A stretch of DNA of 64,000 nt from Agrobacterium tumefaciens (GTDB lineage Bacteria; Pseudomonadota; Alphaproteobacteria; Rhizobiales; Rhizobiaceae), in assembly GCF_005221325.1 (NCBI RefSeq), contig NZ_CP039888.1, positions 1,240,001 through 1,304,000 of the forward strand. Direction: 5' to 3'. The notes beneath the pieces were generated by a model. That model ran no database searches, was not told where the DNA came from, and saw only the letters and a program-made list of their open reading frames with translations. Below are positions 6,241 to 12,282 of the stretch, piece after piece. Both the position numbers and the translations under genes were made by a program. How positions within the stretch are numbered: the first letter of the stretch is position 1; each line of letters starts with the position of its first letter.

Positions 6241-6268
6241 TAATCGCATAAGATAGATTGTGGAATTT
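6241..6268 (+). repeat. dif: dif-like Xer site, left end of the microvirus prophage
   Basis: XerC-type arm TAATCGCATAA (6241-6251), six-base centre GATAGA (6252-6257), XerD-type arm TTGTGGAATTT (6258-6268). The layout is that of bacterial dif: arm ending GCATAA, six-base centre, arm beginning TTATG. The XerD arm here has TTGTG instead of TTATG. It pairs with the direct copy at 12255-12282. Confidence 0.82.
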
Positions 6269-6382
6269 CAGAGGTTTAGTGACAGTGTATATTCATACAC
6301 TTGAGTAACTCACGTTACATAATCTGTGTGAACTGATTTGGGGTCACTCGTCAAGCATTAGAATGAACTTCCCAACACTTTA
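6269..6382. other. Non-coding end of the microvirus with two short hairpins
   Basis: No gene. Two perfect small inverted repeats sit side by side: GTGTAT-ATTC-ATACAC (6285-6300) and GTAAC-TCAC-GTTAC (6305-6318). In circular or single-stranded phage DNA these lie next to the Xer site and could be promoter, origin or protein-binding elements. Confidence 0.4.
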
Positions 6383-6874
6383 TTAACACCACGGCACAAA
6401 GGATTTTCTACCTCCGCCGCCGCCCTTCGAACGGGCTGCTTTTTTGCTGTCTGGACGCTTTTTGCACACTGGTAGATCGCGCGCCTTTTCAGACGACTTC
6501 CTTGCGTCAGGCTCAGGTGTGCTTGGAGCTAAGGACAGCTGTGATACTTGGCGGGGAGGGTGTGCCGTTTTTACGACCGGCTTCCTAACGGGCGCATACT
6601 TCGGCTTTGGCTTCGCCGCCTTCGGTCGTGATATCGAGGGAAGAGACGAGACAGGCCGAAGCGATGTTTTCACATCGACATAATTCGTCCTGGGGGAATT
6701 GCGCTTCACCGTAACCCGCAGGGCCGGTTCAGCTACCCGCCTCACCTGAAAGGCGAGGGCAGGACCTACAGTTCTATCGGGACTGTAGGAACGTGAGTTT
6801 GAAACCCGGCGAGACGCCACAGGCGTTCTGTCTCGTACGGGTTGTGACTTTTTGGCTTTATTTTTACGTGCCAT
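6383..6874 (-). CDS. Basic, proline-rich microvirus protein of unknown function
   Basis: A 163-residue, strongly basic, low-complexity protein rich in Lys, Arg, Pro and Ser, with no predicted membrane segment. It ends with a glycine run and the motif RKSFVPWC. Its first 109 bases overlap the 3' end of rep in another frame, a usual microvirus economy. Composition suggests nucleic-acid binding. It is the last phage gene before the left Xer site. No homologue is recognised with certainty. Confidence 0.7.
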   Translation of the reverse strand: MARKNKAKKSQPVRDRTPVASRRVSNSRSYSPDRTVGPALAFQVRRVAEPALRVTVKRNSPRTNYVDVKTSLRPVSSLPSISRPKAAKPKPKYAPVRKPVVKTAHPPRQVSQLSLAPSTPEPDARKSSEKARDLPVCKKRPDSKKAARSKGGGGGRKSFVPWC

Positions 6875-7842
6875 CCGGCATCTCCCTCATGATCGATTGA
6901 GAACCACAGCCGGACACCGGCAGTGGCGGTGAAGTAGCAGTTTGCTTTTTCGCAAAACTGCACAATTGCCCCTTCGAATGGCGGGGCGACGGGGACAGGC
7001 CCCTTAGAGCGGTGCTCTGAATAAAGGAACTCATCGTACACGGGCGTAGCTCCGGTATCGAGGAAGTCCCAAATGATCTCACTGCGGGGAGGGAGATCAC
7101 CATGCTTTTCATCCCAAATGTCGATGAAATATTGCAGGAAGTTTTCCGCCGTTTTTCCGGTCATGTGGAACTGAACCGGCTTGGCCGCTTCCCGAAACTG
7201 CTTATGCGTTTTGGCGCGAAGTGTCCGGGGGACACGGCGCACATCGGGGAAGCCGTACATGAGCGTCTGCGGGGACAGGCCCGCATCGAGATATTCATGC
7301 GCAAGGCGCTTGAAATACTCATGCCCAAGCGGCGGCTTCTTGGAAACCATCGGCCCCCATCCTTGCTGTTCTTCGTCAGCAGCGTCTTTCAGAAGGTACT
7401 TGCACGCATAGCGCACCGCCTCCGGCGTGGACTTGTCCCAATAGGACCAGCCATGCGGCCAATGTTTTTCCATGAAGTTTTCTCTCAACTGATGGTCGGG
7501 GACAGGCCCCTGCCAGTAGAGAATAATGTGCCAATGCGCGCGGCCCTTCATGGAGCCGTATTCGCCTACGACGAAATACCGAACGGGAAACCCATCGGCG
7601 CGGAGATACTTCAGGTATTTTTGCACATCGGAGTAAGTCAGAACCGCAGCACGGATATGATCGATATCGCCCGTTGTGCGATCCTGCCCATAGGTCAGGG
7701 TTACGACATGCGAGGCAGTTGCAGTCTTACTTTCGGCAATGTTTCGGCCAACCCAATCGTCAACTTTGGTTTCCCGACATTGCCAGCATTCGCGACAGGC
7801 CACGACGCCGACATCGCTAATTTTTACCGGGTTCAAACACAT
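6766..7842 (-). CDS. Microvirus replication initiation protein (Rep, VP4-like)
   Basis: 358 residues from the ATG at 7842 (opening MCLNPVKISDVG); an in-frame TTG at 7881 is less likely. Features of HUH-type rolling-circle initiators of Microviridae: N-terminal CRECWQCRE, the metal-binding HxH in MKGRAHWHIILYW, and the downstream Tyr/Lys motif AVRYACKYLLKD holding the candidate nicking tyrosine(s). The enzyme nicks the replicative form to start rolling-circle replication. It lies 159 bp after the peptidase gene, separated by a long perfect hairpin that may hold the origin. Confidence 0.88.
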   Translation of the reverse strand: MCLNPVKISDVGVVACRECWQCRETKVDDWVGRNIAESKTATASHVVTLTYGQDRTTGDIDHIRAAVLTYSDVQKYLKYLRADGFPVRYFVVGEYGSMKGRAHWHIILYWQGPVPDHQLRENFMEKHWPHGWSYWDKSTPEAVRYACKYLLKDAADEEQQGWGPMVSKKPPLGHEYFKRLAHEYLDAGLSPQTLMYGFPDVRRVPRTLRAKTHKQFREAAKPVQFHMTGKTAENFLQYFIDIWDEKHGDLPPRSEIIWDFLDTGATPVYDEFLYSEHRSKGPVPVAPPFEGAIVQFCEKANCYFTATAGVRLWFSIDHEGDAGWHVKIKPKSHNPYETERLWRLAGFQTHVPTVPIEL

Positions 7843-7900
7843 GCGTTTTCGTGTCCTGTCACTAAATGCACCTATTACCAAGGGTGGTGTTTCCGCCGCG

Positions 7901-7940
7901 CCTCCCTCCCTCCCGTGATCTTGGGATCGAGGGAGGGAGG
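7901..7940. other. Perfect 12-bp hairpin with G-runs, candidate phage origin or packaging element
   Basis: CCTCCCTCCCTC (7901-7912) is exactly complemented by GAGGGAGGGAGG (7929-7940) around a 16-base loop. It lies in the only sizeable gap among the phage genes, between the peptidase and rep. The G-strand carries three or four G-tracts one base apart, which could fold as a quadruplex. No U-run follows on either strand, which argues against a simple terminator. Confidence 0.5.
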
Positions 7941-8001
7941 CACGGCTACGCGCCCGCCGAGTTGACGGCGGGTGCGCTTTTCATTCGCCAAAGAGGCTTG
8001 G

Positions 8002-8646
8002 TTACAGGGAGCGGCCAATATCTCGCCAATTGGCGAGTTCCCAATGGGCTGGATCGTAAAACGACCAGTCACCGCCCCATACGACCTGGACGCCCATCGA
8101 GGCCGCGACTTCCTTGCCGATATGTCCGACAAGGTCCCACTGCTTCCGCGTGAGGTCCCACGCTTTCGTGCCGTGCACGATATCAACGGCAAAGCCGTGA
8201 TTGTGGGCCGACTGCCCCGGTTTCGCTTTGCTCAGGCCCTTAACGTACAATCGTTGCTGCTCCACATCATCGCGATAAACGCAATGTGCGAACATTGGCA
8301 CGCCAAGTTTTGCGAAACGCTTAATTAGCTTTCGCTCAAATTCGAGCAAAGTAGGATGCCCCCGAGAGCGATCAGCACGATTGTGCTGACCCTTGTGCCG
8401 TTCGCTGAGAAGGAATGATCTATCGATCACCCCCCTCAGTTCCGCGGCGTATTTGTCGCCGTCAGGCGGTACCGCCCGCTCCGGCTGATCCCCCTCCGGG
8501 GCCGCCCTATTGTTCGCCTCCATTCGGGGCAGGGGCAGTTTCGCCGGGTTCTTCACCGGCTGCGCCTTGTGCTGGTATCTGTTCGCTACCAGCGCCAGCA
8601 ACCGTTCCCGGAGCGTTGGAGACGACGGTTTCTGCAGGTCTGCCAT
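8002..8646 (-). CDS. M15-family peptidoglycan peptidase (phage endolysin)
   Basis: 214 residues. The zinc-peptidase motif SAHNHGFAVDIVH and the later DPAHWEL define the M15 (VanY/endolysin) fold; His, Asp and His ligands are all present. It should cleave peptide cross-links during phage release or entry. The start at 8646 has a strong GGAGGAAG four bases upstream, which means the first 140 bases are also coding, in another frame, for the end of the previous gene (8507-9100). The N-terminal ~70 residues are basic and low complexity. Confidence 0.88.
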   Translation of the reverse strand: MADLQKPSSPTLRERLLALVANRYQHKAQPVKNPAKLPLPRMEANNRAAPEGDQPERAVPPDGDKYAAELRGVIDRSFLLSERHKGQHNRADRSRGHPTLLEFERKLIKRFAKLGVPMFAHCVYRDDVEQQRLYVKGLSKAKPGQSAHNHGFAVDIVHGTKAWDLTRKQWDLVGHIGKEVAASMGVQVVWGGDWSFYDPAHWELANWRDIGRSL

Positions 8647-9100
8647 TTTCTTCCTCCATACGCCGACGCGCGAGCGCGGCTTCGAATTCGTCCGCCTGCT
8701 GCGCGAGGCGACGCTCCAAATTCTGGTTCATGCGGAACATCATTTCTTCGAGTTCCGGATTGCGATGCCGCCGGTTTGCGATCTTGGTGAAGACCACCGG
8801 ATCGACAACCTCAGAGAACGTGGGTTCAAGGTCCGCACTGACATACTGGACCACGCCGGAACCTTTCTCGGCGTACACGCGGAAGGTCCCCGCCGCGTTG
8901 AACTCCACCGTTTCCTGCCCTTCGGGGAGGGTGCAGAGAAACCGCTCCTCATCATCCACGCGGATGAAGAATGACGTGACGGCCTCGAGATTAAAATCGA
9001 TGCGCACACGACGCTCGGCGATGTCCGAGCCGGAGAAGACAATCGCGGTATCGGGCGCAAGCGCCGACCAGCGAGCGAGAGAATTGAGCTTTACGACCAT
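8507..9100 (-). CDS. Microvirus protein following VP1 (scaffold or accessory, unassigned)
   Basis: 197 residues. Residues 1-110 look beta-rich (FFIRVDDEERFLCTLPEG, FRVYAEKGSGVVQYVSADL). Residues ~115-155 form a charged helix, likely coiled coil (LEEMMFRMNQNLERRLAQQA). The tail is Gly/Pro/Glu-rich and disordered. Position directly after VP1 (3 bp gap) is where microviruses carry internal scaffolding or small structural proteins, but no specific family could be recognised. Its last 140 bases overlap the peptidase gene. Confidence 0.7.
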   Translation of the reverse strand: MVVKLNSLARWSALAPDTAIVFSGSDIAERRVRIDFNLEAVTSFFIRVDDEERFLCTLPEGQETVEFNAAGTFRVYAEKGSGVVQYVSADLEPTFSEVVDPVVFTKIANRRHRNPELEEMMFRMNQNLERRLAQQADEFEAALARRRMEEENGRPAETVVSNAPGTVAGAGSEQIPAQGAAGEEPGETAPAPNGGEQ

Positions 9101-9103
9101 TGA

Positions 9104-10765
9104 TCAAGCCTCCTTTTCAATGCGTCCCTGCGGAGCGACCGCAAGCACCTTTTCGTAATCGTCCGTGGCCTCAACCAGATGGCCGCCGAACACGGTGTTT
9201 CCTTCGATGAAAACATCGCCCTGCGTGACGACTTCGAAGGGGTCCTGATTGGTGACGACAAACGGTTTCGTGTGCATGTTCGTGCACAGGTAGAAATCCG
9301 TCGAAAGCGTGGGATTGATCGTCTCGACAGCCCAAATGCGCTGCCGGTCTTCATCGAAGCCGGTGTTAACCGTGGGGCGGTAGAACCGCCCACCGACGCG
9401 GGGTGTGTCGATGATCCAGCGACCATTGAGCGGCTCATAACCGAACGTGGAGTTCGGCGTGGAATGAGACGTGTCGATGCGGCTGTTTTTCACCACATCG
9501 ACCTTTTCGGGATCGAGCGTATCACGCAGATACTGCGGCAAATCATCGACCGACAGGCTATTAAGCCATGGATCTTCCTGCCGCTCGAAAAGCTGGTCGG
9601 GAGTGATCTCCGCCACGACCATGATGATGCCGCCCGTGTTGATGCGCGGCATCTGGATCGACATATCGAGACCCGTCATGCCGTTGACCACACTTTCCGT
9701 CAGGTTGCCGGCATCCGAAGCATAACGCTTGGACATGCCGAAAATCGTCTTGCGATCGGAGAGCAGCATTGGCTGCTTGAACGCCTGATCGGGAATGGAA
9801 ATGGCATCCATCAGCAAATTGATGATGTAATCATCGTGCTGATTATACTGCTGGCGAAGGCGGGCAAACGCCTGTGTTTTGCGGGCCATCTCGATATTGG
9901 AAAGCGACACGGAAATGCCGTTCTCCTCAAGTTCGGCCCAAATGTCCGGGCCAGCGGCAGCAACGGAATGCCGCATAGCGAGCTTCGCAGCACCGGCAAG
10001 GAGCGGTTCTTCTGCGCCCTGAACGAGATACGCAGTCGGATATACGGCGTTGCCGCCCGCCTCCTGTATCGTCGCATTTGTGAGCGGTGTGCCGTGCTTG
10101 TCGTAATAGCCGATACCCGAAAGCCGCAACTGCTGAGACGCAATGTTGAGCGGCACCTCGCCGTCGATAACAGCCTGATCGAAATCGGGAACGATATGGC
10201 TGAAACGCTCATGCGACCAGAAGGCCGGAGCCAGCGTTGCATCAAGACGCGTGCGGAGCGCCAAATCCGGCGAACGGTTCTTCGCACGGAAGTTCCAGAT
10301 TTGGTTATAGGCCTCGATATACGAGGAATTCACCATCTGGTCCGCACGGCCATGTAGGCCTAGATAGCGGTAAATGTCGTTCGAGCCGTGCGCACCGAAC
10401 GCCACCTGCTCAATGAAGGCGACAACCATCTCGCCTTCGAGCGGCGGCTTGCCTTCATACGACAGGTTCAGCTGGTCCATCGAACCGTTGAAGCGTTCGA
10501 GAGCCAGCATCGGCACAAAATAGGCCATGACGCGCACGTTAATCGCGTTCATGAGCACTTCCGCCGTTTCCATCATCTCGAAGGAAAAACGGAGGCGGCC
10601 AGAGCGGACAGCGTCTTCGCGCAAAAGCGGGAAAGCCGCAATCGGCACGCACTTGCCAGCGGGGAGGGACGTGATACCCCTCGCAGAATGCTTGCGCATC
10701 GTGCGGGGAGCCACCAAAGGCTCCGTCCGCGTGCGGCTATTTGTGATTGAATTTGGTCCTGCCAT
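9104..10765 (-). CDS. Microvirus major capsid protein VP1 (F-like)
   Basis: A 553-residue single jelly-roll capsid protein of Microviridae, of which 60 copies build the T=1 shell. Recognisable parts are the N-terminal ITSLPAGKCVPIAAFPLL, the FSFEMMETAEVLMNAINVRV strand pair, the VVAEITPDQLFERQEDPW segment and the C-terminal FVVTNQDPFEVVTQGDVF. Length is in the usual 500-600 range. Its start overlaps the J-like gene by 29 bases. It sits between VP2/J and the unassigned protein at 8507. Confidence 0.9.
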   Translation of the reverse strand: MAGPNSITNSRTRTEPLVAPRTMRKHSARGITSLPAGKCVPIAAFPLLREDAVRSGRLRFSFEMMETAEVLMNAINVRVMAYFVPMLALERFNGSMDQLNLSYEGKPPLEGEMVVAFIEQVAFGAHGSNDIYRYLGLHGRADQMVNSSYIEAYNQIWNFRAKNRSPDLALRTRLDATLAPAFWSHERFSHIVPDFDQAVIDGEVPLNIASQQLRLSGIGYYDKHGTPLTNATIQEAGGNAVYPTAYLVQGAEEPLLAGAAKLAMRHSVAAAGPDIWAELEENGISVSLSNIEMARKTQAFARLRQQYNQHDDYIINLLMDAISIPDQAFKQPMLLSDRKTIFGMSKRYASDAGNLTESVVNGMTGLDMSIQMPRINTGGIIMVVAEITPDQLFERQEDPWLNSLSVDDLPQYLRDTLDPEKVDVVKNSRIDTSHSTPNSTFGYEPLNGRWIIDTPRVGGRFYRPTVNTGFDEDRQRIWAVETINPTLSTDFYLCTNMHTKPFVVTNQDPFEVVTQGDVFIEGNTVFGGHLVEATDDYEKVLAVAPQGRIEKEA

Positions 10766-10856
10766 TTTGGGTTCCTTTCTTGAACCTTTTGAAAACTTTC
10801 TTTACCGTCACCGCCGCACGCCTACAGGTGCGACACCGTTTCTTTGGAGAAGGCAT
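10737..10856 (-). CDS. J-like basic DNA-packaging peptide (39 aa)
   Basis: A 39-residue peptide, MPSPKKRCRTCRRAA followed by VTVKKVFKRFKKG and ending NGRTKFNHK, with 15 Lys/Arg and no acidic residue. AGGGG lies about seven bases before its ATG. Its 3' end overlaps the VP1 start by 29 bases in another frame. Short, extremely basic peptides encoded next to the capsid gene (J or VP8) bind the single-stranded genome inside microvirus shells; this one fits by charge, size and position. Identification is by these properties, not by sequence similarity. Confidence 0.72.
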   Translation of the reverse strand: MPSPKKRCRTCRRAAVTVKKVFKRFKKGTQNGRTKFNHK

Positions 10857-10859
10857 AAA

Positions 10860-10985
10860 ATGACCCCTGTTCAGTCTCAGGCCCTTGATTTACTTGCCAA
10901 AATATTCATTTGGACCGTAAAGGGCTTCGCCCTCGCTTTCGGCATAAGTATCGCAGCCGGTATTATCGCCGCTTTCTTCATCTAG
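10860..10985 (+). CDS. Small membrane peptide on the opposite strand of the microvirus (41 aa, tentative)
   Basis: ATG at 10860 with GGAGAAGG nine bases upstream. The product is 41 residues, MTPVQSQALDLLAKIF then a continuous hydrophobic stretch ending SIAAGIIAAFFI, i.e. one membrane helix. It runs against all other phage genes and starts 4 bp from the J-like start, back to back. Being on the non-virion-sense strand it could be transcribed only from double-stranded (replicative or prophage) DNA. A competing 34-codon minus-strand frame covers the same DNA, so it is tentative. Confidence 0.4.
   Translation: MTPVQSQALDLLAKIFIWTVKGFALAFGISIAAGIIAAFFI
10877..10981 (-). CDS. Short frame coupled to the VP2 stop (34 aa, tentative)
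   Basis: The ATG at 10981 overlaps the VP2 stop as ATGA, and 34 codons follow (opening MKKAAIIPAAILMPKARA). Coupling to VP2 and the need to fill a 121-bp gap speak for it; the low complexity and the rival antisense frame at 10860-10985 speak against. No family recognised. Confidence 0.3.
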   Translation of the reverse strand: MKKAAIIPAAILMPKARAKPFTVQMNILASKSRA

Positions 10986-11982
10986 CGCGGGATAAACTCG
11001 GCACCATTTCTCTGATCTCATCGAAATACTTCTTGCGATACTTCGGGTCGGGCTTCGTTGCTTTCGCACGATGATAACGCCCCGTGCCATAGGCATCATT
11101 GGCCGTCTTTGCGTTTCGGTATGCCGAATACGCAGCATCGCCTAGAAACTTAACAGCACCGCCGATAGTCGAGAAAATCTCGTTATCGCCGTAGATAGTT
11201 TCCGTAGTTTCAGCATCCGGAAACCACGGGGCATGAAACCAGCCTTTACGGCCATCATTCAGCCCCATGCTAGAAACGGTAGGATCATCCCCACCGACCA
11301 ACGTACCTTCACCCGGCTTATTGCCGCCGGACTTCGTGAAGGAACTCGACCGAGACGCAAGGCTTGCGCCCGCGCCGGACGGCCGCCGTTCGAAATCGCC
11401 CTGGGCGAACGAACCGACACCACGCGCAACACCGGACAAAGCAGACGCGTTGAGCGCTGCAATCTGGCTTTCAACCAGCCGGTATTCCTGTTCGCGCTTG
11501 CTATCCGCGAACGGGTCAAAGTTGGACATGAAATCCCCAACAGCGCCGACCGCATCAGCGGCGACCGATCCACCAACCGCCTGCCGAACAGGCGCTTGAC
11601 GGGCAGGGGATGGAGACGCAGTCAAAGGAGTGGACGACAGCGGAGCAAAGCCCGCCCCGGCGTTATAGTTCGAAGCCGCACCACTGCGAACGAGCGTCAG
11701 CGGGTTAAACCCCGCTTTCGTCGCATCCTCGACAAGATTGCCGAGAACGGTGCGGCTGTACGCCCGAGCCTCATCAAGTTGAGCGCGGTCATACGCCCGA
11801 CTTTCCTCCAACTCGGTCCGGTTGTAAGCCCGTTCTTCCGTCCGGTCCTCCAACTGCCATTCACGCTGCTGCTCGGCAGCAGCCATGTCATTGGCGTATT
11901 GCTGGTTGGCCTGTTTTTTTGCGGCCTTATTCTTGAGAGCACTCCCGGCGATACCAGCGATCGCGGGAATGAGGAAATTCAG
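10978..11982 (-). CDS. Microvirus DNA pilot / minor capsid protein VP2 (H-like), CTG start proposed
   Basis: Up to 334 residues. The first ATG (11886) would cut off a hydrophobic glycine-containing N-terminus (LNFLIPAIAGIAGSALKNKA) that pilot proteins usually have. The open frame reaches back to a CTG at 11982, 11 bases after AGGAGG and four bases after the previous gene's stop, and no ATG, GTG or TTG exists there. The middle has a long charged coiled-coil (residues ~33-75: REWQLEDRTEERAYNRTELE), the part that in phiX174 H forms the DNA-conducting tube. The rest is Gly/Ser/Ala-rich. Confidence 0.78.
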   Translation of the reverse strand: MNFLIPAIAGIAGSALKNKAAKKQANQQYANDMAAAEQQREWQLEDRTEERAYNRTELEESRAYDRAQLDEARAYSRTVLGNLVEDATKAGFNPLTLVRSGAASNYNAGAGFAPLSSTPLTASPSPARQAPVRQAVGGSVAADAVGAVGDFMSNFDPFADSKREQEYRLVESQIAALNASALSGVARGVGSFAQGDFERRPSGAGASLASRSSSFTKSGGNKPGEGTLVGGDDPTVSSMGLNDGRKGWFHAPWFPDAETTETIYGDNEIFSTIGGAVKFLGDAAYSAYRNAKTANDAYGTGRYHRAKATKPDPKYRKKYFDEIREMVPSLSRAR

Positions 11983-11985
11983 GAA

Positions 11986-12216
11986 TTAACGAACCTCCTG
12001 TGTTTTGGGTTTCGACACGCGCTTGCGCTTGGGCTTAGGAGCCTGCTTTCCCGCGAACACGAAATCCGCGAGAAGGAGCAGACCAGCGACAACCCAAGCC
12101 TCGAACTTAGCAGAGAGCGACGGATCGACCGCCATAGCGCCGGACAAGGCCGACGCCGCTAATGCGCCGAAGCGCATCGCAAGCGGCTTAATGAGAACAG
12201 ACACGAAATTTTTCAT
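11986..12216 (-). CDS. Small microvirus membrane protein, possible holin
   Basis: 76 residues from the ATG at 12216 (GAAGGGA upstream). A moderately hydrophobic N-terminal half (VLIKPLAMRFGALAASALSG) is followed by a clear membrane helix (AWVVAGLLLLADFVFAG) and a strongly basic tail (KPKRKRVSKPK). Size and layout resemble small holins, and the phage also encodes a peptidoglycan peptidase that would need one; this is inference. It is the first phage gene inside the right Xer site and is followed at once by VP2. Confidence 0.6.
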   Translation of the reverse strand: MKNFVSVLIKPLAMRFGALAASALSGAMAVDPSLSAKFEAWVVAGLLLLADFVFAGKQAPKPKRKRVSKPKTQEVR

Positions 12217-12254
12217 GAACGATCCCTTCCAGATGTTCACGAAATTCCCCAATT

Positions 12255-12282
12255 ACATCGCATAAGATAGATTATGGAACTT
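12255..12282 (+). repeat. dif: dif-like Xer site, right end of the microvirus prophage
   Basis: XerC-type arm ACATCGCATAA (12255-12265), centre GATAGA (12266-12271), XerD-type arm TTATGGAACTT (12272-12282). Same orientation as the site at 6241-6268; 16 consecutive bases TCGCATAAGATAGATT are shared. Its XerD arm keeps the canonical TTATG, suggesting that this right half derives from the host dif. Confidence 0.82.

What the first reader, a model, noticed from the sequence alone, without database searches (positions are those of the whole stretch)
6241..12282. Complete Microviridae prophage integrated at dif in a rhizobial chromosome
A 6.0-kb block has a microvirus gene set (Rep with HxH, jelly-roll VP1, pilot-type VP2, J-like peptide, M15 peptidase), no integrase, and is bounded by direct copies of a 28-bp dif-like Xer site. 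All frames look open. Xer-dependent microvirus lysogeny is known for enterobacterial gokushoviruses and for Bacteroidetes; a rhizobial case with this gene order seems new or little described, and the intact genes suggest an inducible phage.
Basis: partly seen in the sequence, partly recalled or inferred. Interest (0 to 1): 0.9.

Follow-up and report, generated by a model that had tools for sequence, protein, structure and literature searches.

The report
Dif-integrated microvirus with opposite-strand gene
A complete small single-stranded-DNA phage sits in the terminus site of a rhizobial chromosome, apparently put there by the host's own recombinases, and it seems to carry a tiny membrane-protein gene written on the opposite strand from its other genes.

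Summary
Window 6243-12281 is an intact-looking 6,014-bp microvirus prophage between two copies of the host dif site, the only two in the genome by pattern search, where GC skew flips. Relatives give the empty site. In 18 integrated elements (this one and 17 relatives, chromosomal and plasmid) the host-side XerC arm is canonical and the spacer is the same at both ends; the phage-side XerC arm is usually degenerate. One end should thus be a working dif, the other weak. Temperate microviruses of Hyphomicrobiales, and dif integration of an alphaproteobacterial microvirus, are in print, so the prophage is a new member of a known kind.

What my searches did not turn up elsewhere is a 41-aa single-helix ORF on the opposite strand (10860-10985, +), filling the VP2-J gap. 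Fourteen of 37 genomes compared have that gap; all 14 carry such an ORF. Codon changes indicate purifying selection (pN/pS 0.24-0.57; lowest of six frames in 10 of 10 pairs). A 2022 survey removed every gene facing against VP1, stating that microviruses have none. Function is inferred: lysogen-phase superinfection exclusion, or lysis. There are no expression or excision data.

The parts
6243..6267 (-). dif-like site, Rep-side end: phage XerC arm (AATTCCACAA) + spacer TCTATC + host XerD arm (TTATGCGAT)
6383..6874 (-). basic 163-aa protein overlapping the Rep 3' end; C-terminus ..SFVPWC resembles the L009 protein (..SFIPWC), by eye
   Evidence: no Pfam/PHROG/NCBIfam match
6766..7881 (-). Rep (VP4), HUH-type replication initiator
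   Evidence: PF23343 7.3e-17; phrog_942 2e-36
7895..7976 (.). two GC-rich hairpins between endolysin and Rep (terminator or replication origin, inferred)
8002..8646 (-). M15 peptidase / endolysin
8507..9100 (-). 197-aa protein downstream of VP1 (scaffold-like position, inferred)
   Evidence: a hypothetical protein has this position in most of the records
9104..10765 (-). VP1 major capsid protein
   Evidence: phrog_514; 77% to Flyfo microvirus Tbat2_105; 83% to pAt2788a prophage; family profile A1 matches solved capsid chains 9ffg/9ffh, 3e-11
10737..10856 (-). J-like basic peptide (39 aa), overlaps VP1 start
10860..10985 (+). opposite-strand ORF, 41 aa, one predicted membrane helix, fills the VP2-J gap
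10978..11982 (-). VP2 pilot-type protein (start CTG at 11982 inferred; first ATG 11886)
11986..12216 (-). membrane ORF upstream of VP2 (76 aa from ATG); similar ORFs at this place in about half of the relatives
12257..12281 (-). dif-like site, VP2-side end: host XerC arm (AGTTCCATAA) + spacer + phage XerD arm; predicted working dif

Best explanation
A temperate microvirus. Infecting ssDNA becomes a double-stranded circle. Host XerC/XerD recombine its single dif-like attP with the chromosomal dif at the terminus and insert the 6,014-bp genome (integration pattern shown by comparison; enzymes inferred). Because the phage's own XerC arm is degenerate while its spacer and XerD arm match the host, one prophage end is a full dif (12257) and the other a weak one (6243). 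That should keep chromosome-dimer resolution working and make excision rare (inferred). Capsid, J, pilot, endolysin and Rep genes read from the minus strand. A 41-aa membrane peptide reads from the plus strand and is very probably a real, selected gene (codon evolution; not yet seen expressed). Its product most likely acts in the inner membrane of the lysogen, for example in superinfection exclusion (inferred, about 35%), or in lysis (about 25%).
For: dif pair and uniqueness. Terminus: GC skew positive in 9 of 10 samples before the site and negative in 9 of 10 after it; GGGNAGGG 14:0 before, 2:8 after. Empty site: G006 flanks 92% and 91% identical, meeting at dif apart from an IS30-family insert; pAt of A. 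fabrum C58 is an uninterrupted empty site for the sister prophage L194 (98.3% and 97.6% flanks). 18 integrated elements: host XerC arm 0 of 162 mismatches, phage XerC arm 49 of 162, spacer identical in 18 of 18 (two undetermined letters of L087 read change nothing). XerD profile over cut-off, second Xer-like hit on C1. Opposite-strand ORF: 6 of 13 prophages under one rule against 0.11 expected; of 5 plasmid prophages fetched afterwards, 4 pass the same rule against 0.065 expected and the fifth, L198, has a shorter ORF seen by eye; 11 of 11 pairs show more amino-acid identity than simulated, P at most 0.005; six-frame control; no excess RNA structure in 5 stretches folded; the RefSeq annotation has a reverse-strand CDS there in L197.
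Against: No expression, excision or virion data. The rule was set. In one search I cut 10 of 11 pairs to the first 20-25 codons by hand (only L195-L002 is full length), and pairs share sequences, so they are not independent. In L003 the start is TTG/GTG; L198's peptide is 26 aa and fails the rule; L087's falls just below the hydrophobicity cut. The apparent Shine-Dalgarno overlaps J codons, so it may be a by-product, and L194, L195 and L002 lack a clear one. One sense frame is also stop-free in the three L194/L195/L002 pairs (pN/pS 0.48, 1.50, 0.54). Promoter-like sites are no more than chance. Of 58 metagenomic loci scanned (of 80 fetched), 4 hits came at about the chance rate. RefSeq annotates no such CDS in L194, L195 or L196. 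The association with attP is not significant once phylogeny is counted.
Confidence: 0.83

Rival explanations
1. The opposite-strand ORF is not a gene: its openness and hydrophobicity come from base composition or from constraint on the minus strand (regulatory or coding).
For: Small size; no clear promoter; apparent SD overlaps J codons; one sense frame is open in the L194/L195/L002 pairs; metagenomic loci show only chance-level hits.
Against: That frame has the lowest pN/pS in 10 of 10 pairs and no stop in any; each of the other five frames has stops in at least some pairs, the in-register sense frame in 9 of 10; simulated identity is exceeded in 11 of 11 pairs; shuffles rarely give such an ORF; no unusual folding.
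Confidence: 0.16
2. The opposite-strand peptide is a lysis factor (holin-like) that lets the M15 endolysin reach the wall.
For: Single short helix; an endolysin is present; 4 of 7 close elements lacking it have a 25-45-aa single-helix ORF on the sense strand between endolysin and attP, against 0 of 14 that have it (cut-offs chosen afterwards; 4 of 16 further phages also have one).
Against: Another membrane ORF upstream of VP2 passes the hydrophobicity cut in 19 of 37 elements (counted by eye) and could be the holin; a lysis gene read against all late genes is odd.
Confidence: 0.25
3. Cryptic prophage: degraded and unable to excise.
For: VP2 lacks an ATG start; one att site is weak; found in 1 of 39 genomes of the genus.
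Against: The genes are open and of similar length to those of free circular relatives; L196's annotated VP2 also starts inside the conserved N-terminus.
Confidence: 0.12
4. Insertion was by another route (transposition or homologous recombination) and merely landed at dif.
For: A degenerate attP arm could look like chance.
Against: 18 of 18 elements end at dif-like sites with identical spacers on several replicons; no transposase or integrase match among the window's ORFs tested.
Confidence: 0.03

Closest known systems
Prophages and free microviruses of the same VP1 clade: pAt2788a prophage (83% VP1), Flyfo microvirus Tbat2_105 (77%)
   Same: Gene order, J peptide, attP position, opposite-strand ORF
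   Different: Both have another type of VP2 C-terminus and opposite-strand peptide; pAt2788a has another spacer and replicon
Rhizobium chicoviruses/chaparroviruses (RHph, RHEph; PMC9512667)
   Same: Same core gene order; VP1 about 50% identical; lytic isolates on Rhizobium
   Different: No attP-like site, no VP2-J gap and no opposite-strand ORF in the 3 records checked
Ebor, 'Tainavirinae' of Rhodobacter capsulatus (PMC11980548)
   Same: Prophage flanked by XerCD dif motifs, lysin gene, alphaproteobacterial host
   Different: Integrates within the cbbII operon, 6,611 nt, carries a putative methylase (passages read)
Enterogokushovirus EC6098 (PMC7062461)
   Same: Integrase-less microvirus using XerC/XerD at dif; lysogens made experimentally
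   Different: Gokushovirinae of enterobacteria; continuous excision reported; arm asymmetry not discussed in the passages read
IMEX: TLCphi, GGI, VGJphi (PMC5357621)
   Same: One dif-like attP that departs from dif on one side
   Different: Those keep the XerC side; here the XerC arm is the poorer one in 13 of 18, XerD in 2, tie in 3 (passages)

Membership tests
Microviridae | Microvirus major capsid protein | tested here: met
Microviridae | HUH replication initiator, pilot protein and J-like peptide | tested here: met
   Rep; J; VP2 by position and alignment to relatives:
Microviridae | All genes in one direction (a curation rule in PMC9239249 rather than a taxonomic criterion) | tested here: not met
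   conserved opposite-strand ORF, not yet shown expressed; capsid and Rep leave membership in no doubt
Microviridae | T=1 capsid with circular ssDNA genome | not testable with these tools
   no virion data
Element exploiting Xer (IMEX) | Flanked by dif-like sites, no own integrase, at host dif | tested here: met
Element exploiting Xer (IMEX) | Integration depends on XerC/XerD | not testable with these tools
   Xer genes present; needs mutants
TLCphi/GGI type attP | XerC arm and centre conserved, XerD arm divergent | tested here: not met
   window has the mirror arrangement
Gokushovirinae / Tainavirinae / Amoyvirinae | Place inside the subfamily by VP1 phylogeny | not tested
   held only rows related to the window; no chosen reference members of these subfamilies

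The most novel reading that the evidence does not exclude
Temperate Hyphomicrobiales microviruses carry a true opposite-strand gene whose membrane peptide is made in the lysogen and blocks genome entry by phages with a matching VP2 pilot protein. It swaps between phages as a cassette with the VP2 C-terminus and gives these 6-kb phages a two-direction genetic layout, while an attP with one poor arm keeps the host dif working.
Probability: 0.27. Interest if true: 0.86.

Novelty: new variant of a known kind. Interest (0 to 1): 0.63.

Why it matters
One large microvirus reference set was curated on the rule that all genes face one way, so an opposite-strand gene would have been removed from it. 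If translated, this ORF shows that very small DNA phages can use both strands, and gives a candidate for a lysogeny-specific gene in this lineage. The attP with one poor arm, seen on chromosomes and plasmids alike, suggests how a phage without integrase can stay integrated at dif and still leave the host a working site. A natural empty site in pAt of strain C58 makes this testable.

Tried and rejected
Tried: RNA structure as the cause of conservation in the VP2-J gap (no excess in 5 stretches). A sense-strand gene in the gap: the in-register sense frame holds stops in 9 of 10 pairs; another sense frame is open in three pairs, with higher pN/pS. Promoter and terminator scan: counts at or below the shuffle mean. 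Pfam and PHROGs for the small peptides: nothing convincing (best E 0.042); NCBIfam: no match for VP1, Rep, the 197-aa or the basic protein. attP versus opposite-strand ORF: Fisher 2e-4, but only 3 independent pairs on supported branches, median p 0.5. L083 is a 6.5-kb contig ending at both dif-like sites, tempting as a sign of mixed states, but this proves nothing. Literature: Microviridae with dif and rhizobia gave 0 papers in two searches. The listings, and the 15 shown of 464, named no opposite-strand microvirus gene and no dif study of rhizobial microviruses that I could recognise from title or abstract start. I read passages of PMC9512667 (plus its outline and one whole section), PMC9239249, PMC11980548, PMC7062461, PMC5357621 and PMC9929535; the rest were listings only, so absence from print is not proven. 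IS, Shine-Dalgarno, HUH and KOPS-type motif labels are partly recalled; the IS30 label was checked.
Full report
OBSERVATION. The two site copies at 6243-6267 and 12257-12281 are real, 6,014 bp apart, with 2 mismatches in 25; 100 shuffles of the window gave no match. A degenerate dif pattern hits the whole 6.14-Mb genome exactly twice, at these places. They lie on a 2.95-Mb contig where GC skew changes sign: 9 of 10 samples before it are positive, 9 of 10 after it negative, and GGGNAGGG octamers switch strand (14:0 before, 2:8 after). The genome has one XerD hit over the curated cut-off on C2 and a second strong Xer-like hit, below that cut-off, on C1, probably XerC (the XerC label is inferred).

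GENES. Apart from the ORF discussed below, the element's genes read on the minus strand: membrane ORF, VP2, J-like peptide, VP1, 197-aa protein, M15 endolysin, Rep and a basic protein. VP1 matched 73 phage records; the best is Flyfo microvirus Tbat2_105 at 77%, and Rhizobium isolates are near 50% (40 of 73 listed). Profile A1 matches two solved chains at E up to 0.01, both named major capsid protein, 9ffg and 9ffh. VP2 lacks an ATG at its conserved N-terminus; a CTG at 11982 behind a GGAGG is the probable start (read, inferred).

RELATIVES. VP1 was found in 1 of 39 genomes of the genus, in 7 of 394 of the family including this one (of these, G167 is a 74-residue piece at a contig end and G250 a weak 28% hit, both dropped) and in 4 of 397 of the order including this one. 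A contig scan gave 7 loci and plasmids 7 of 72,556 records (I fetched the best 5 of 7). That leaves 18 integrated elements, the window included. I also fetched 19 of the 73 phage records, and 80 metagenomic viral loci, of which 58 entered and up to 9 the tree.

ATT SITES. In 18 of 18 elements both ends carry a dif-like site with the same 6-bp spacer. The outward XerC arm (host side) has 0 of 162 mismatches to GTTCCATAA; the inward XerC arm (phage side) has 49 of 162; the phage XerD arm has 15 of 144 and the host XerD arm 12 of 144 (sites; missing L087 letters). The XerC arm is the poorer in 13, the XerD arm in 2 (L007, L086), tied in 3. Host and phage sides were assigned from position. Element L009 is permuted: its attP lies after VP1, so attP has moved at least once. 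Five of 19 free circular genomes have one such site with 0 or 1 mismatch and 0 of 20 shuffles as good; the 3 Rhizobium isolates checked have none. Empty sites: G006, where left and right flanks (92% and 91%) meet at dif apart from an IS30-family insert; G004, where dif equals the right copy but about 1.2 kb separates it from the left flank; and pAt of C58 for L194, flanks 98.3% and 97.6%, sharing one site. Of the other relatives' dif loci compared, most match the right flank at dif only in short stretches and none shows both flanks.

OPPOSITE-STRAND ORF. In the window the 121 nt between the VP2 stop and the J start hold an open frame on the plus strand, 10860-10985, encoding MTPVQSQALDLLAKIFIWTVKGFALAFGISIAAGIIAAFFI. 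Under one rule (26-70 aa, hydrophobicity 2.2 or more, start 60-170 nt before VP1), set after looking, 6 of 13 prophages have one against 0.11 expected from shuffles; over all 90 loci scanned it is 12 against 5.2, the other 6 being two phages and four metagenomic loci, the latter with high chance rates. L087 falls just under the rule and was added by eye. The five plasmid prophages were fetched after this idea arose: 4 of 5 pass the same rule against 0.065 expected; the fifth, L198, has a 26-aa ORF starting farther upstream, seen by eye. In all, 14 of 37 elements have VP2-to-VP1 distances of 188 nt or more (L195: 164 by script, 210 by its annotation) and all 14 carry the ORF; the other 23 have 144 nt or less. 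In 11 pairs pN/pS is below 0.6 and amino-acid identity exceeds simulated identity (P at most 0.005 each; 10 of 11 pairs cut by hand to the first 20-25 codons; pairs not independent; strongest L195-L002 at full length, pS 0.51, pN 0.12). In 10 pairs the frame has the lowest pN/pS of six and no stop (window-L007 is the weakest, 0.57 against 0.62 for the next frame; one sense frame is also open in the three L194/L195/L002 pairs). The RefSeq annotation shows a reverse-strand CDS over it in L197 but not in L194-L196; L198's record has no annotation.

EVOLUTION. On the VP1 tree (45 rows, one short row dropped) the ORF needs 7 changes against 12.1 for shuffled labels, 0 of 500 as low. VP1 sisters differ in peptide type: window (MTP..) with L194 (MW..), L196 (MTP) with L002 (MW), L007 (MTP) with L195 (MW). 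Among these six, VP2 C-terminus identity is 46-75% in 4 of the 6 same-type pairs, 27% and 29% in the two that involve L007, and 26-32% in the 9 cross-type pairs. I read this as cassette exchange; simple linkage explains it too.

FUNCTION. The ORF occurs only in elements with an attP: 14 of 14 against 9 of 23, Fisher 2e-4, but prophages were found because they were integrated and the phylogeny-aware test is not significant. That and the link to VP2 suggest exclusion of incoming phages; a lysis role is the main rival. Both are inferred.

WHAT IS KNOWN. PMC9239249 (passages) states that all microviruses have genes in one direction and that reverse genes were removed, and mentions temperate phages of soil/plant Hyphomicrobiaceae. 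PMC9512667 (passages and one section) lists putative prophages in Mesorhizobium, Agrobacterium, Ochrobactrum and R. pusense; the term Xer does not occur in its main text. PMC11980548 (passages) shows XerCD/dif motifs for Ebor. PMC7062461 (passages) shows XerC/XerD-dependent lysogeny in E. coli. PMC5357621 (passages) describes TLCphi and GGI attP with divergent XerD arms.

VERDICT. The prophage is a well-supported new member of a known kind. The opposite-strand ORF and the mirror-type attP make it a new variant.

Noticed in passing
window 7895-7976: Two neighbouring GC-rich hairpins between endolysin and Rep; may be a terminator or the rolling-circle origin.
   Followed up: no
L009 5832-11698: Rhizobium straminoryzae prophage is circularly permuted: attP lies after VP1 instead of after Rep, so dif-like sites have arisen or moved more than once.
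   Followed up: partly
L194, L195, L196 (Agrobacterium pAt plasmids): Related microvirus prophages sit at dif-like sites of conjugative plasmids, each with its own spacer; spacer identity may set which replicon a phage enters.
   Followed up: partly
L091 3723-4724: An IS30-family transposase gene lies between the yceI gene and dif in relative G006; L194 also has an annotated IS30 transposase just outside its attR.
   Followed up: partly
L083 1-6507: A 6.5-kb contig that begins and ends at dif-like sites; possibly an assembly trace of mixed integrated and excised states.
   Followed up: no
L086 6465 and 12867: Prophage with both XerC arms canonical but a degenerate phage XerD arm, the opposite of most relatives (TLCphi-like).
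   Followed up: no
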